DNA from: Plebeiibacterium marinum
Lineage (GTDB): Bacteria > Bacteroidota > Bacteroidia > Bacteroidales > Marinilabiliaceae
Assembly: GCF_026013615.1 (NCBI RefSeq)
Contig: NZ_JAPDPI010000034.1
Location: 1-55,459, forward strand
DNA length: 55,459 bases
Reading direction: 5' to 3'
The translations under genes and the position numbers were made by a program. Shown here piece after piece: positions 16,191 to 54,528 of this stretch. Every line of letters begins with the position of its first letter. The stretch's first letter is position 1. The notes beneath the pieces are model-generated. The model did not search any database, had not been told where the DNA came from, and saw only the letters and a list, made by a program, of their open reading frames with translations.

Positions 16191-16629
16191 TTCATTAAAA
16201 TTTTGATTAGTATTATTCTTCTATAACTCAAAGCGAAGTTATCCATTGCATTAAGAGGCGCCTTTTACTCTAAGATATTTGATTTATAATATCAGATAAT
16301 AACCGCCTTTTCAACAAGATACTCCAGGCCGGAATAAAGATATTGAATCACAACACCCCTCCAAACATCCTCTAAAGGGTGAGGCTAAAAATCCCCTTTA
16401 GAAGAAAAATAGGGGTAAAACAGAAGATAGAATCTTGAATTTATCTAGCAAATGAGAGCATATTAATTAAACTCAAGACAATTCTATCCTAATTATTATT
16501 TTTATTGGCGTTTCACCCAAGCCCGGCTTCATTTTTTTTTATTTTGGACGCGCCAGAATTCAAAACTCTATTTTCATCCCTTGATTCGCATTTATTACAA
16601 ATACTTCTTCCATTATCTATTAAACTAAA
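16191..16629. other. 439-bp intergenic region: promoter and hairpin
   Basis: No gene found. It holds the shared promoter element (16233-16293) next to the GH43-SASA start. A hairpin with 9-bp arms (16371-16379 with 16394-16402) has no U-tract and may end the transcript of the GH43-CBM6 gene stopping at 16630. A run of ten T lies near 16532-16541. The rest shows nothing. Confidence 0.6.
16233..16293 (-). promoter_or_regulatory. shared promoter element, copy A (before GH43-SASA operon)
   Basis: The operator-like core at 16274-16293 reads GATATTATAAATCAAATATC on the minus strand. It is followed after 32 bp by TAACTTCGC (16233-16241), a variant of the TAnnTTAGC box. The predicted start of transcription would give a leader of about 35 nt before the ATG at 16190, a normal length. 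The spacing is identical in all six copies in the window. Confidence 0.7.
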
Positions 16630-18012
16630 TCACTCCATAAATTGCCAATAATCGAAATTCATAAGGACTTTTTCAGTTTTGCCTTTAAAGATGAAATAAA
16701 CACCATGTACCCCGGTTATCTTTTCAACATCTATAGTAATTAAACCCCACTTGCCATCACCACCATACATTGGCACTTGCACACTCCCAACTAAAAGGCC
16801 ATCACGGCTATCGAGGCGGACTTCCATTATTGCGCCACTATCAGTTGAAGTGCCAAGTTGTGCTGTAAATTTGACAGCCCCCTTTTCGCCAAAATCAACA
16901 CCTTTAACTTTAGTGAATGCATTATTTGTTTCGGCAGTGATGAAAACACCAACTTCATTATCCTCTTTATATTTAACCCCCTCGGACCAAGCCATTGTTT
17001 CAGCCTCATTTCTTTTGAATGGATTTAAATGTGCCACACCTTCTTTCACGCCTTCTTTTGTTGGGTTGATTAATGGAATGGTTCCGTCAGAATTATACTC
17101 AAATTGCTCAACACAAGTAGAGCGCCTAAAACCTCCGCCATTAGGCAACCCCTGGTTATGATAGAAGAAATATGAATTGCCTTTATAATCAATAACCCCT
17201 GCATGATTTGTAAACGCCAAGTCCTCTGAACGCTCCATTATTATCCCCTGGTAAGCCCATGGGCCTTCCGGCGATTTAGAGGTTGAATACCCAATGTATT
17301 CGGGCACGCCTTCTGCTGCGTAAATAAGGTAATAAAGATTGTTTCGCTTATAAAACCATGGGCCTTCAACGTATTTGGTACCCGAAGTGCCATCTTTTTT
17401 TACCCCTTTCCCAAAAGATTCAGCAACCATATCAACCGATACCACACCATTATTTCCAATACTTTTATCGTATGAAAGCATATCTTCATTCAATTTCACA
17501 TACCAAACATTTGGATTTCCCCAGTATAAATAAGCCTGCCCATCATCATCAATATATATAGTCGGGTCAATATCATTCCACAAATGATCGCTATCTATCA
17601 GCTGTTTGCCCAAAGGATCGGAAAATGGCCCATATGGCGAATCTGCTACCAAAACACAAATGCCAGTCCCGTGAATAGGCACATAAAGGTAGAATTTGCC
17701 ATTTCGTTCGATACATTGAACCGCCCATGCCCCATTTGTTTTATCCAGCCACTTGAAGTTTTTTAACGATGCCACTGCACCATGGTTTGTCCAATTCACC
17801 ATATCAACCGATGAATAACAATGCCAATCGTACATTGTGAAAAAATTGTCTTTCGTATCGTCCTCATCATGCGATGTATATAGAAAGACAGTATCGTTAT
17901 AAACCATTGGCGCCGGATCGGCAGTAAAACTTGTTTGAATAATAGGGTTCTGTGCATTTACCCTACCAAGAACTGTTGCCAACAACAGGGCAATTAAATA
18001 ACTTCTTTTCAT
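16630..18012 (-). CDS. GH43 arabinofuranosidase/xylosidase with C-terminal CBM6
   Basis: A 460-residue exported enzyme with a signal peptide ending near residue 21 (VNAQ). The GH43 catalytic residues are base Asp32 (FTADPAPMVY), Asp149 (DIDPTIYIDDD) and acid Glu216 (YVEGPWFYKR). About 335-460 are a CBM6-like domain beginning at NEAETMAWSEG and ending in an NFDYW element. This architecture is typical of arabinoxylan arabinofuranohydrolases; the linkage specificity cannot be read from sequence. Long identical stretches show that the gene at 35575-36972 is a recent paralogue. It appears to be transcribed alone, from the promoter at 18313-18373, with an 88-bp palindromic repeat in the presumed leader. 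Confidence 0.9.
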   Translation of the reverse strand: MKRSYLIALLLATVLGRVNAQNPIIQTSFTADPAPMVYNDTVFLYTSHDEDDTKDNFFTMYDWHCYSSVDMVNWTNHGAVASLKNFKWLDKTNGAWAVQCIERNGKFYLYVPIHGTGICVLVADSPYGPFSDPLGKQLIDSDHLWNDIDPTIYIDDDGQAYLYWGNPNVWYVKLNEDMLSYDKSIGNNGVVSVDMVAESFGKGVKKDGTSGTKYVEGPWFYKRNNLYYLIYAAEGVPEYIGYSTSKSPEGPWAYQGIIMERSEDLAFTNHAGVIDYKGNSYFFYHNQGLPNGGGFRRSTCVEQFEYNSDGTIPLINPTKEGVKEGVAHLNPFKRNEAETMAWSEGVKYKEDNEVGVFITAETNNAFTKVKGVDFGEKGAVKFTAQLGTSTDSGAIMEVRLDSRDGLLVGSVQVPMYGGDGKWGLITIDVEKITGVHGVYFIFKGKTEKVLMNFDYWQFME

Positions 18013-18037
18013 CTGTTTATATTTTGTTTTTTAAGGC

Positions 18038-52468: not shown

Positions 52469-54394
52469 CTAATTATTTAGTGGCGTTAATTCAGCAGCAA
52501 AACCACCACGGCGCAACATTTTCACATCAATGGTACTTGTATTATCCACCACCAGATGTTTTACAGAGAAGGTTTTATCATGAATGCCATCGCTGATTAA
52601 TGTCAGTTTATATTTTACATTTTCAGATAAGAAACTGAAATTCAGCTTTTGCGTTTTTTCTTTCTGTATCCCCGAAATTCCACCAATGTACCAATTGGCT
52701 CCTTTTTGGCGCGCCATAACAGTAAATTCTCCCGGATAACCATCCAATAGTTTTGTATCATCCCAGGTATTTGGCACGGTTTTCAAAAAGCTTTTAGCAG
52801 CATCGGGCAATTCGTAATATCCTTCGGGACGGTCGGCCATGTGCTGCATCGCAGATTCAAACAAAACACTTAATGCCAATTCGTGACCATAAGAAGTAAT
52901 GTGAGGATATTGTGAGTTGGTAAACGTTACCGGCGTATAATCCATTGCCCCTACTACATTGCGGGTAAATGGCAAGGTTGCATTATGTTCTGGTGCTGTT
53001 GTTGTTAACTCAGGGCTGTTATTGTACCATTCTGCCCCTCTTACCCCTTCGTAAGTCATTAAATGCGGATAGGTTCTTTGCCAGCCACGAGGCACCAAGC
53101 AGCCATGAAAGTAAACCATTATCTCGAATTTTGCTGCATCTTCCAAAATATCGAGGTAATAATTAATCATGTCTTGTTTTTCGCTTTCAAAAAAGTCGAC
53201 CTTCACACCTACAATGCCTAATTTCTTTAACTTGGCAAACTCTTCCATACGATTCTCGTGAGTTAACATTCGGTCTTTTGGTGTAGCGCCAACCCAGGTA
53301 TGCTCACCTCCCGAATTGTACCATATCAATGGTTTAACTCCTAACGAATGGATATATCTTAAGGCATCTTCCAGATTACCACCATTAGTCATGGCATCCC
53401 ACTCCCAATCCAAAAGCGTATAATCCCATCCCATCGAAGCTGCTAAATCGGCAAATTTGCATACTGTTTTATAATCCTTTGTACCATGATTATCTGACCA
53501 ATAGTTCCATGATGCAACACCTGGCTTAATCCACTCGGTATCAACAATCACCGAAGGGGCAGATACGTCATTTACCAAAGTAGATTCCACAATATCCGCA
53601 AGGCTACCCATTACAATTACCCTCCAAGGCGATTTCCAAGGAAGTGTTACAGTTGGTTGTACTTCGCCAGTACCCCTGCCATTCCATTCATCCGGGAAAG
53701 TTATTTTATATTTCGTTTTGTCTCCGTAATTCGTTAATTTTGAACCACAAAAATTACGGTTAACATCGGCTTCGTGAATTAAAAACCAGCAAGAGGTATC
53801 GGGTGTGCTAAAAAGTGCAGGATAAGCCCAATCTTTCTGTTCCGTGCCATCGGCCATTTTTGCATAAAGCCCTTCGTTAGCCGGGTTGAATTTTTGTAGC
53901 CAACGCATGGTACTGTCTGGAATAGTATAAGCTGTTAGCTCATCCGTTACTTTATACGCTACATTTTTGCCAGGGAATTCATAACAAAAAGCAACGCCAT
54001 CGTTATAAGCCCTGATTATAAGGTTTACTTTTGCTTTTCCCGAATTTTCGAAAAAGGCTACTACCTCATTGCCGGAATTGCTACAATCTGTTTTCTTCCC
54101 GTGCAGCATGGTGTAATTTTCCTGTATTGATTTTGATTTTCCGGCTTTTAAGAATTTAAGCCCTTTTGAGAAATCGGCCTCAGAACAAACAAGGCCTAAA
54201 TCTATCTGAGGAATAACTTCGGTTTGTTTACCACCGTTTTTGTAATTGACTTTTAAATACCAATTGCCACTTTGTTGATTAAAAAGTTGAACATTCACCT
54301 TTCTGTTAGGAGATATAATAGAAACAGTTTGAGAATTGACAAAAGATATCGAGATTATAAAAATTAAAGTTATAGAACCAATTCTTTTTTTCAT
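52469..54394 (-). CDS. GH97 retaining alpha-glycosidase (second copy)
   Basis: A GH97 enzyme of about 640 residues. The longest frame starts at 54430; the ATG at 54394 (MKKRIGSITL) gives the normal signal peptide ending in FVNSQ. Numbering from 54430: nucleophile Asp412 in GVKVDFFESEKQ and candidate acid/base Glu461 in LMTYEGVRGAEW, hence the retaining alpha-galactosidase-like type. FHGCLVPRGW and TRNVVGAMDYTP are family blocks. It is diverged from the copy at 4709-6658 (EGVRGAEW against EAVLASEN), so linkage or sugar preference probably differs. It is the first gene of the window in transcription order, behind promoter element F. Confidence 0.9.
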   Translation of the reverse strand: MKKRIGSITLIFIISISFVNSQTVSIISPNRKVNVQLFNQQSGNWYLKVNYKNGGKQTEVIPQIDLGLVCSEADFSKGLKFLKAGKSKSIQENYTMLHGKKTDCSNSGNEVVAFFENSGKAKVNLIIRAYNDGVAFCYEFPGKNVAYKVTDELTAYTIPDSTMRWLQKFNPANEGLYAKMADGTEQKDWAYPALFSTPDTSCWFLIHEADVNRNFCGSKLTNYGDKTKYKITFPDEWNGRGTGEVQPTVTLPWKSPWRVIVMGSLADIVESTLVNDVSAPSVIVDTEWIKPGVASWNYWSDNHGTKDYKTVCKFADLAASMGWDYTLLDWEWDAMTNGGNLEDALRYIHSLGVKPLIWYNSGGEHTWVGATPKDRMLTHENRMEEFAKLKKLGIVGVKVDFFESEKQDMINYYLDILEDAAKFEIMVYFHGCLVPRGWQRTYPHLMTYEGVRGAEWYNNSPELTTTAPEHNATLPFTRNVVGAMDYTPVTFTNSQYPHITSYGHELALSVLFESAMQHMADRPEGYYELPDAAKSFLKTVPNTWDDTKLLDGYPGEFTVMARQKGANWYIGGISGIQKEKTQKLNFSFLSENVKYKLTLISDGIHDKTFSVKHLVVDNTSTIDVKMLRRGGFAAELTPLNN

Positions 54395-54467
54395 ATAAAA
54401 ATATATAACATTACTTAATACCGAAAACAAGCTGATTTATAATACTTAAATCTTGCCTTTAAAAACA

Positions 54468-54528
54468 ACTAAAATATTTAATTTTAACCTACCCATTTAT
54501 CGATTTTAGATATATGAATTATGAAATT
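54468..54528 (-). promoter_or_regulatory. shared promoter element, copy F (before GH97-GH3)
   Basis: The weakest core (54509-54528, minus strand AATTTCATAATTCATATATC), but with TCTAAAA directly after it as in copy C. After the same 32 bp comes TATTTTAGT (54468-54476). The leader to the ATG at 54394 is about 65 nt. Confidence 0.5.

What the first reader, a model, noticed from the sequence alone, without database searches (positions are those of the whole stretch)
16233..54528. Six-copy promoter module with fixed spacing defines a probable regulon
On the minus strand, a 20-bp AT-rich core (about GATATTAnAAATnAAATATC, usually followed by TTAnA or TAAAA) occurs at 16274, 18354, 22761, 31601, 46698 and 54509 (left ends). 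In every case it is followed after exactly 32 bp by TAnnTTAGC or a near match (TAACTTCGC, TAATTTAGC three times, TACATTAGC, TATTTTAGT). This box resembles the Bacteroidota -7 element. All six are intergenic, in the same orientation, and upstream of an enzyme gene. Identical spacing despite diverged flanks points to selection: an activator site centred about 50 bp above the start of transcription. No regulator gene lies in the window, so the factor (hybrid two-component, AraC-type or other) must be encoded elsewhere.
Basis: partly seen in the sequence, partly recalled or inferred. Interest (0 to 1): 0.85.

Follow-up and report, generated by a model that had tools for sequence, protein, structure and literature searches.

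The report
Xylan-enzyme switches read by one sensor
Six matching control sequences in front of plant-fibre (xylan) enzyme genes are, most likely, docking sites for one membrane sensor-regulator encoded elsewhere in the same genome; this is a well-supported new example of a known kind of switch, with an unusually rigid layout.

Summary
The six modules are real, at the stated places and spacing. The "core" is not the binding unit: the site is a direct repeat of 16-bp half-sites with 21-bp period, then 21 bp, then a -7 box. An enlarged model finds nine strong places in the 5.6-Mb genome, all in its training set: these six, and three within 9 kb of a hybrid two-component regulator (HTCS, P0001) in a xylan locus on contig C121. 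Among 99 relatives, sites (E<=1e-4) occur in 19 of 20 with a P0001 ortholog and 0 of 79 without; outside training genomes, 12 of 13 versus 0 of 79. In held-out stretches a repeat-only matrix gives 33 hits, 27 with TAnnTTTG (at most one mismatch) at that spacing. Best explanation: P0001 binds as a head-to-tail dimer above RNA polymerase and activates six enzyme operons in trans. Direct-repeat HTCS sites averaging 21 bp were predicted in Bacteroides (PMC3878776), so this is a new member of a known kind. All six window boxes read TAnnTT(A/C)G, unexplained. Binding and transcription starts are untested.

The parts
16233..16299 (-). module 1: half-sites 16284-16299 and 16263-16278, box TAACTTCGC 16233-16241; above 13857-16190 (GH43 + SASA esterase) and probably the genes down to 655
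   Evidence: Pfam; operon extent inferred from gaps
18313..18379 (-). module 2: half-sites 18364-18379 and 18343-18358, box TAATTTAGC 18313-18321; above 16630-18012 (GH43-CBM6), 302 nt from box to ORF start
   Evidence: Pfam
22720..22786 (-). module 3: half-sites 22771-22786 and 22750-22765, box TAATTTAGC 22720-22728; above 20556-22535 (esterase, two matched stretches) and probably 18976-20553 and 18390-19019
   Evidence: Pfam; operon extent inferred
31560..31626 (-). module 4: half-sites 31611-31626 and 31590-31605, box TACATTAGC 31560-31568; above 29312-31408 (GH43) and probably the genes down to 23133 (GH2, GH43)
   Evidence: Pfam; operon extent inferred
46657..46723 (-). module 5: half-sites 46708-46723 and 46687-46702, box TAATTTAGC 46657-46665; above 44527-46569 (GH27) and probably the genes down to 31854 (GH43, GH115, GH31)
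   Evidence: Pfam; operon extent inferred from gaps
54468..54534 (-). module 6: half-sites 54519-54534 and 54498-54513, box TATTTTAGT 54468-54476; above 52469-54430 (GH97) and probably the genes down to 46835 (GH3, esterases)
   Evidence: Pfam; lowest leave-one-out score of the six (17.3)
655..54430 (-). enzyme-only xylan cluster served by the six modules: GH43 (several), GH127, GH97 (two), GH98, GH115 (two), GH2, GH31, GH27, GH3 and esterases; no SusC/SusD and no regulator family among the 28 proteins scanned (3 of the 28 had no Pfam family)

Best explanation
[quoted passage not shown] Shown: the module layout (16-bp half-site, 5 bp, 16-bp half-site in the same orientation, 21 bp, -7 box); that strong sites in this genome are found only in the window and in P0001's own xylan locus; their co-occurrence with P0001 orthologs in relatives; the layout in held-out genomes. 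Inferred: a xylan-derived oligosaccharide binds the periplasmic propeller of P0001; phosphorylation of the receiver domain frees the AraC-type DNA-binding domains; two of them bind head to tail on one face of the helix, two turns apart; the downstream half-site, ending at about -34, takes the place of a -33 element and holds RNA polymerase on the -7 box (class II-like activation). One sensor would thus switch on the uptake/core locus on C121 and the six enzyme operons of the window together.
For: Direct repeat: period 21 is by far the best in 17 relatives' sites (score 11.2, next period 0.02, best inverted arrangement 0.4); these sites were collected with a matrix of the window sites, which does not score repeat symmetry as such although it carries the window's own weaker repeat. 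Own genome: nine sites with E<=3e-6 (six window, three C121, all in the training set), next 0.056; the C121 sites start at 227396, 234807 and 239930, within 9 kb of P0001. P0001 has Reg_prop, Y_Y_Y, HisKA, HATPase_c, Response_reg and HTH_18 domains and sits among SusD, a TonB plug protein, GH43, GH67, GH95 and GH115. Relatives: the eight with the best hits to the window-only model all carry a P0001 ortholog, present in 20 of 99 (chance 7e-7, with the cut placed before the first relative lacking an ortholog). Enlarged model: 19 of 20 with ortholog, 0 of 79 without; held out 12 of 13 versus 0 of 79. Contrasts within genera g1, g4, g12 and g13 go the same way. Of 63 relatives' hits with E<=1e-4, 40 lie within 75 kb of the ortholog on its contig. 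Spacing: 27 of 33 repeat-only hits in 20 held-out stretches have the box (at most one mismatch) at column 59, 3 at column 60; 0 hits in reversed sequence. Same-genus G008 keeps the module above its 83%-identical copy of the window's GH43-SASA gene. No TTG in columns 32-45, where a -33 element would lie, in 6 of 6 window sites and 13 of 17 relatives' sites.
Against: No binding or expression data. P0001 is on another contig; no shared 16-mer was found between the 400-bp ends of C115 and C121, so physical linkage in this genome is unproven. The half-sites of the window are less alike (mean 8.8 of 16) than those of relatives (11.0 of 16), and in the window alone the direct and inverted scores are close (0.01 and -0.6). 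The window-only model does not separate the other 12 ortholog-bearing relatives from the rest (best E 0.024 to 0.62). All six window boxes differ from TAnnTTTG at one base, unlike 19 of 20 sites elsewhere. G042 has two ortholog genes but its best R2 hit is weak (E 0.0038). G015 has four near-identical modules far from its ortholog, above short genes of unknown family. Two repeat hits in named loci (L012, L013) have no good box at column 59 (2 mismatches). Genomes share ancestry, so counts are not independent trials; some held-out hits are near-copies of each other or of training sites.
Confidence: 0.85

Rival explanations
1. Same site and same HTCS, but P0001 sits on the DNA as a repressor and leaves it on sensing its sugar, as PMC7815789 proposes for a Bacteroides arabinoxylan locus.
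For: PMC7815789 (passages) draws such a model; PMC3404733 (passages) reports an HTCS that also represses.
Against: The repeat lies wholly upstream of the -7 box and, by the extrapolated numbering, ends at about -34; a TTG was not found in columns 32-45 in 6 of 6 window sites. Both suit activation. In B. xylanisolvens mutation of a xylan HTCS lowered expression (PMC4855328, passages).
Confidence: 0.07
2. Another HTCS paralog or a free AraC-type activator, not P0001, reads the sites.
For: About 30 genes with a Y_Y_Y domain exist in this genome (30 of 31 matches over the cut-off; not each shown to be an HTCS), and 21-bp-period repeats are also common near the others.
Against: Presence of sites follows P0001 orthologs specifically (19 of 20 versus 0 of 79), although 15 of those 79 have a more distant HTCS relative at E<=1e-150; three of the nine sites lie within 9 kb of P0001; in named loci repeat hits occur in 3 of 4 stretches with a P0001-type HTCS and 0 of 13 with another HTCS.
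Confidence: 0.06
3. The core is a palindromic operator (GATATT-n8-AATATC) for an ordinary dimeric repressor or CRP-like factor.
For: The core consensus of the window is a 6-8-6 dyad, and in the six window sites direct and inverted scores are close (0.01 and -0.6).
Against: In relatives the dyad vanishes (best inverted 0.4) while the direct repeat strengthens (11.2); bases upstream of the core (columns 2 and 4) are invariant in the six.
Confidence: 0.02
4. The window boxes are read by an alternative sigma factor, the common base change marking a separate promoter class. (Not exclusive of the HTCS model: the two could act together.)
For: All six boxes have A or C where 19 of 20 other sites have T; PMC9723704 (passages) describes variant boxes ascribed to other sigma factors.
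Against: The same repeat at the same spacing carries TAnnTTTG or a near match in C121 and in relatives, including an orthologous promoter (TAATTTTA in G008). TAnnTTAG is not enriched above genes in the 164 upstream regions examined of this genome (10 sense, 10 antisense, 17 reversed).
Confidence: 0.03

Closest known systems
HTCS regulons of Bacteroides thetaiotaomicron (Ravcheev et al. 2013, PMC3878776; abstract and passages seen)
   Same: Direct-repeat sites with centre distance averaging 21 bp, above polysaccharide-utilization operons, assigned to AraC-type HTCS proteins; some regulons include distant operons.
   Different: Other organisms (the window's nearest named relatives are Carboxylicivirga and a Marinilabiliaceae bacterium). 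In the passages seen no fixed distance to the -7 box is given. Site sequences could not be compared: their logos and alignments were not seen.
B. xylanisolvens PUL 43 HTCS acting on rPUL 70 (PMC4855328; abstract and passages seen)
   Same: A xylan HTCS in one locus controls enzyme genes in another locus, directly or indirectly.
   Different: Shown there by mutation; here inferred from sites, without a mutant.
B. ovatus PUL-XylL for complex xylan (PMC8002723; passages seen)
   Same: GH98, GH31, GH115, GH95 and GH43 enzymes for decorated xylan, in a system with an HTCS sensor-regulator.
   Different: Here the enzymes fill an assembly contig without SusC/SusD, apart from the contig that holds transporter genes and regulator.
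Class II AraC-family activators such as MelR, RhaS or AraC at araBAD (recalled, not from a call)
   Same: Tandem same-orientation half-sites, the proximal one against the -35/-33 region.
   Different: Membrane-bound hybrid kinase, Bacteroidota -7 box, rigid 21-bp gap.

Membership tests
HTCS regulon (Bacteroidota) | regulator with sensor, HisKA/HATPase, receiver and AraC-type HTH in one chain | tested here: met
   P0001 domains; [quoted passage not shown]
HTCS regulon (Bacteroidota) | site is a direct repeat with about 21-bp period | tested here: met
   (period 21 best in the window, in 17 relatives' sites and in all 26)
HTCS regulon (Bacteroidota) | sites lie above SusC/SusD or enzyme operons of one polysaccharide, near the HTCS gene in some genomes | tested here: met
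   exception: the G015 cluster above short unknown genes
HTCS regulon (Bacteroidota) | regulator and sites co-occur across genomes | tested here: met
   19 of 20 versus 0 of 79
HTCS regulon (Bacteroidota) | phosphorylation-dependent binding of the regulator to the sites | not testable with these tools
   reported for other HTCSs in PMC11253607 (passages)
Primary-sigma (-7) promoter of Bacteroidota | TAnnTTTG box | tested here: inconclusive
   at most one mismatch in 27 of 33 held-out sites at column 59; window boxes are one mismatch away in 6 of 6, with A or C for the third T
Dimeric repressor operator (palindrome) | conserved dyad symmetry | tested here: not met
   best inverted score 0.4 versus 11.2 direct in 17 relatives' sites (in the six window sites alone the two are close)

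The most novel reading that the evidence does not exclude
HTCS promoters of this kind obey a rigid rule (two 16-bp half-sites 21 bp apart, then exactly 21 bp to the -7 box, with no -33 element), so that the regulator itself replaces the -33 contact; and the enzyme-only cluster has a common off-consensus -7 box, TAnnTT(A/C)G, that makes its promoters wholly dependent on the activator, giving a second tier of expression behind the sensor-transporter locus. The off-consensus box is shown; its effect is conjecture.
Probability: 0.25. Interest if true: 0.55.

Novelty: new member of a known kind. Interest (0 to 1): 0.42.

Why it matters
HTCS proteins are among the most common regulators of polysaccharide loci in Bacteroides (PMC11501099, passages), and PMC7815789 calls the DNA target of an arabinoxylan HTCS yet to be determined (passages). 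Here the site, its exact distance to the promoter, its likely regulator and nine predicted sites come from sequence alone and can be tested with one purified domain and one mutant. If the 21-bp rule holds for other HTCSs, their regulons could be read directly from genomes; that generality was supported here only for the repeat period and not shown for the gap.

Tried and rejected
Palindromic operator: rejected on relatives' sites. Chance or repeat element: rejected, since flanks are no more alike than composition predicts; the window also shows no Rfam match at gathering threshold. Generality of the layout near other Y_Y_Y genes of this genome, tested on 27 stretches plus L189 (one search also L188 and L190): period 21 dominates (47 elements, both strands counted, next 34 at period 14; 77 recurring pairs, overlapping windows counted, in 7 stretches against 4-17 pairs for the other eight periods), but the 21-bp gap is not established: it ranks 7th, 5th and 1st of 442 cells at three thresholds, boxes are hardly more frequent there than elsewhere (0.13 against 0.09 per element), and only one recurring pair shares a gap, 8 bp. 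The control on the window and C121 used looser cut-offs and says little. TAnnTTAG as a general promoter type in this genome: negative. Literature on the distance from HTCS site to -7 box: searches listed none whose title or passages seen state it; only open-licence PMC papers are held, and of the papers opened I saw passages, not whole texts.

Selection to declare: the 17 relatives' sites of the enlarged model were chosen by eye: 16 with score above 15 plus one at 12.0; five others above 15 were left out (four near-identical G015 sites and one in G047). The three C121 sites were taken from four listed (one at 19.6 left out). Cut-offs (half-site score 14 or 16, E 1e-4, 75 kb, 1026 bits) were set by me after seeing the lists. 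E-values come from shortened calibration. The whole-genome searches scored a limited number of candidates per genome (150 in own and 51 in each relative for the models, 6 for P0001), so weak sites and some homologs may be missing, and the match lists were cut. The 63 hits counted were copied by hand.
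Full report
OBSERVATION. The six modules exist exactly as described: position, orientation, 32-bp distance and box letters. Each left-out module outranks every non-training position in the window when scored with a matrix of the other five. A sequence-only model of the six (R1) finds them in the 5.62-Mb genome with E 4.7e-13 to 7.1e-9; the next place has E 0.017. 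The window is the whole of contig C115. Of 27 inter-gene gaps the five widest each hold a module, and the sixth module is above the last gene, so six promoters can account for the whole gene row. Between sites, half-sites are 68% and 73% and boxes 79% identical, but the 21-bp gap and the 60-bp flanks only 31%, as expected from composition (30%).

ANATOMY. The real unit is a direct repeat. In the 68-column alignment columns 1-16 and 22-37 are two half-sites (consensus of 26 sites nTATCTGATATTAnAA and ATATCTAAAATTAAAA), columns 38-58 an unconserved gap, and columns 59-66 the box. In the window the halves agree at 8.8 of 16 positions on average at shift 21; shuffles, best of seven shifts, averaged 6.2 and never exceeded 8.0 in 5000. 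In 17 sites from relatives the agreement rises to 11.0, and period 21 stands alone (11.2 against 0.02 for the next period and 0.4 for the best inverted arrangement); in the six window sites alone direct and inverted scores are close (0.01 and -0.6).

REGULATOR. Of the 28 window proteins scanned, 25 match Pfam families (carbohydrate-active enzymes, esterases, one DUF3237 protein) and 3 match none; no regulator is among them. With the enlarged matrix, sites appear on contig C121 starting at 227396, 234807 and 239930, near a 1312-aa HTCS (P0001, 227694-231632) in a locus with SusD, a TonB plug protein, GH43, GH67, GH95 and GH115. The enlarged model R2 (26 sites) gives exactly nine places with E<=3e-6 in the genome, the next at 0.056; all nine were in its training set, so what this shows is the absence of further strong sites.

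CO-OCCURRENCE. P0001 orthologs (at least 1026 bits, the lowest cut by a contig end in G009; the next class is 746 bits or less) occur in 20 of 99 relatives (six candidates scored per genome). The eight relatives with the best hits to the window-only model all carry one (chance 7e-7); the cut is where the first relative without an ortholog appears (E 0.0105), and R1 does not separate the other 12. With R2 at E<=1e-4, 19 of 20 ortholog genomes and 0 of 79 others have a site; leaving out the seven genomes whose sites trained R2, 12 of 13 against 0 of 79. The exception is G042 (E 0.0038); the best genome without an ortholog has E 4.4e-4. Shared ancestry inflates such counts, but the contrast also holds inside genera: in g1 two relatives have both and six neither, in g12 two and six, in g4 four and one, in g13 one and one ('neither' means no ortholog and no site at that cut-off). 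Of 63 hits, 40 lie within 75 kb of the ortholog on its contig, 2 on its contig but far away, 21 on other contigs. In 80 named loci fetched with a window enzyme, repeat hits (score above 16) occur in 3 of 4 with a P0001-type HTCS, 0 of 13 with another HTCS, and 2 of 63 with none in the stretch; of these six hits the box is within one mismatch at column 59 in four. One of the three, L012, is probably the same genome as G056 (equal contig length).

SPACING. To avoid building in the answer I scanned 20 stretches (396,881 bp) from the 13 held-out genomes with a matrix of the two half-sites only (cut-off 14). There were 33 hits and none in the reversed sequences; TAnnTTTG with at most one mismatch begins at column 59 in 27 (19 of them exact, counted from the output) and at column 60 in 3; no other column has more than 2. 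Some of these are near-copies of each other or of training sites (for example L254 and L259, L248 and G046). All 13 genomes have at least one hit, G042 included.

MECHANISM. PMC9723704 places the -7 box of Flavobacterium psychrophilum at -12 to -5 (passages). By that numbering the repeat spans -70 to -34, its centre about -52, and the proximal half-site ends where B. thetaiotaomicron promoters have a -33 element (PMC7366714, passages). No TTG occurs in columns 32-45 in any of the six, nor in 13 of 17 relatives' sites. That is the layout of an activator in contact with RNA polymerase, standing in for the -33 element. Phosphorylation-dependent DNA binding by the AraC-type domains of HTCSs is reported for B. 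thetaiotaomicron proteins (PMC11253607, passages), and an effect of one xylan HTCS on a second xylan cluster, direct or indirect, in B. xylanisolvens (PMC4855328, passages). That P0001 senses a xylan fragment, and that it activates rather than represses, are inferences.

UNEXPLAINED. All six window boxes carry A (five) or C (one) at the position that is T in 19 of 20 other sites (p 3e-5, counting sites as independent). The orthologous promoter in same-genus G008 has TAATTTTA, so the change there is local; but one further, weaker G008 site (C198:20391, above a 715-aa ORF without a match among the reference proteins) has TAGTTTAG, so the variant is not unique to the window. TAnnTTAG is not a general promoter type in the parts of this genome examined. 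A weaker, strictly activator-dependent second tier is a possible reading, untested.

COMPARISON AND NOVELTY. Direct-repeat HTCS sites with mean centre distance 21 bp were predicted in Bacteroides in 2013 (PMC3878776, passages). This regulon belongs to that kind on every feature that could be tested here. Not found in the papers searched are this assignment to P0001 and its orthologs and the fixed 21-bp gap to the -7 box. Near other Y_Y_Y genes of this genome the 21-bp period recurs, but the gap rule could not be shown.

Noticed in passing
window 42275-44386: 703-aa protein with no Pfam family above threshold, 84% identical in G009 and 74% in G038 inside their xylan clusters; a candidate undescribed xylan-related protein.
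   Followed up: partly
window 54729-55459: Contig end without an ORF over 63 aa, 80% identical to the first 762 bases of contig C173; perhaps a repeat that broke the assembly.
   Followed up: partly
window 31854-32880: A short esterase-like ORF (198 aa, matching only the start of the profile) next to a 119-aa ORF without a match; possibly an interrupted esterase gene or an assembly error.
   Followed up: no
window 6672-11114: 1480-aa GH98 protein with about 950 residues after the GH98 domains that match no Pfam family.
   Followed up: no
L174 11271-11338 and 16037-16104, L175 17611-17678, L176 3357-3424: Four near-identical repeat modules in G015, about 3.3 Mb along the contig from its P0001 ortholog (some 0.8 Mb if the contig is circular), above short ORFs (125-160 aa) with no Pfam family over the cut-off rather than enzymes.
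   Followed up: partly
L183 3844-7740 and 15968-19828: Two P0001-type HTCS genes about 12 kb apart in G020; similar close pairs in G029, G038 and G048.
   Followed up: no
window boxes at 16233, 18313, 22720, 31560, 46657 and 54468: All six -7 boxes share an off-consensus position (A or C for the third T of TTTG) that is T in 19 of 20 other sites of the set; one further G008 site has the same change (L269 10391).
   Followed up: partly
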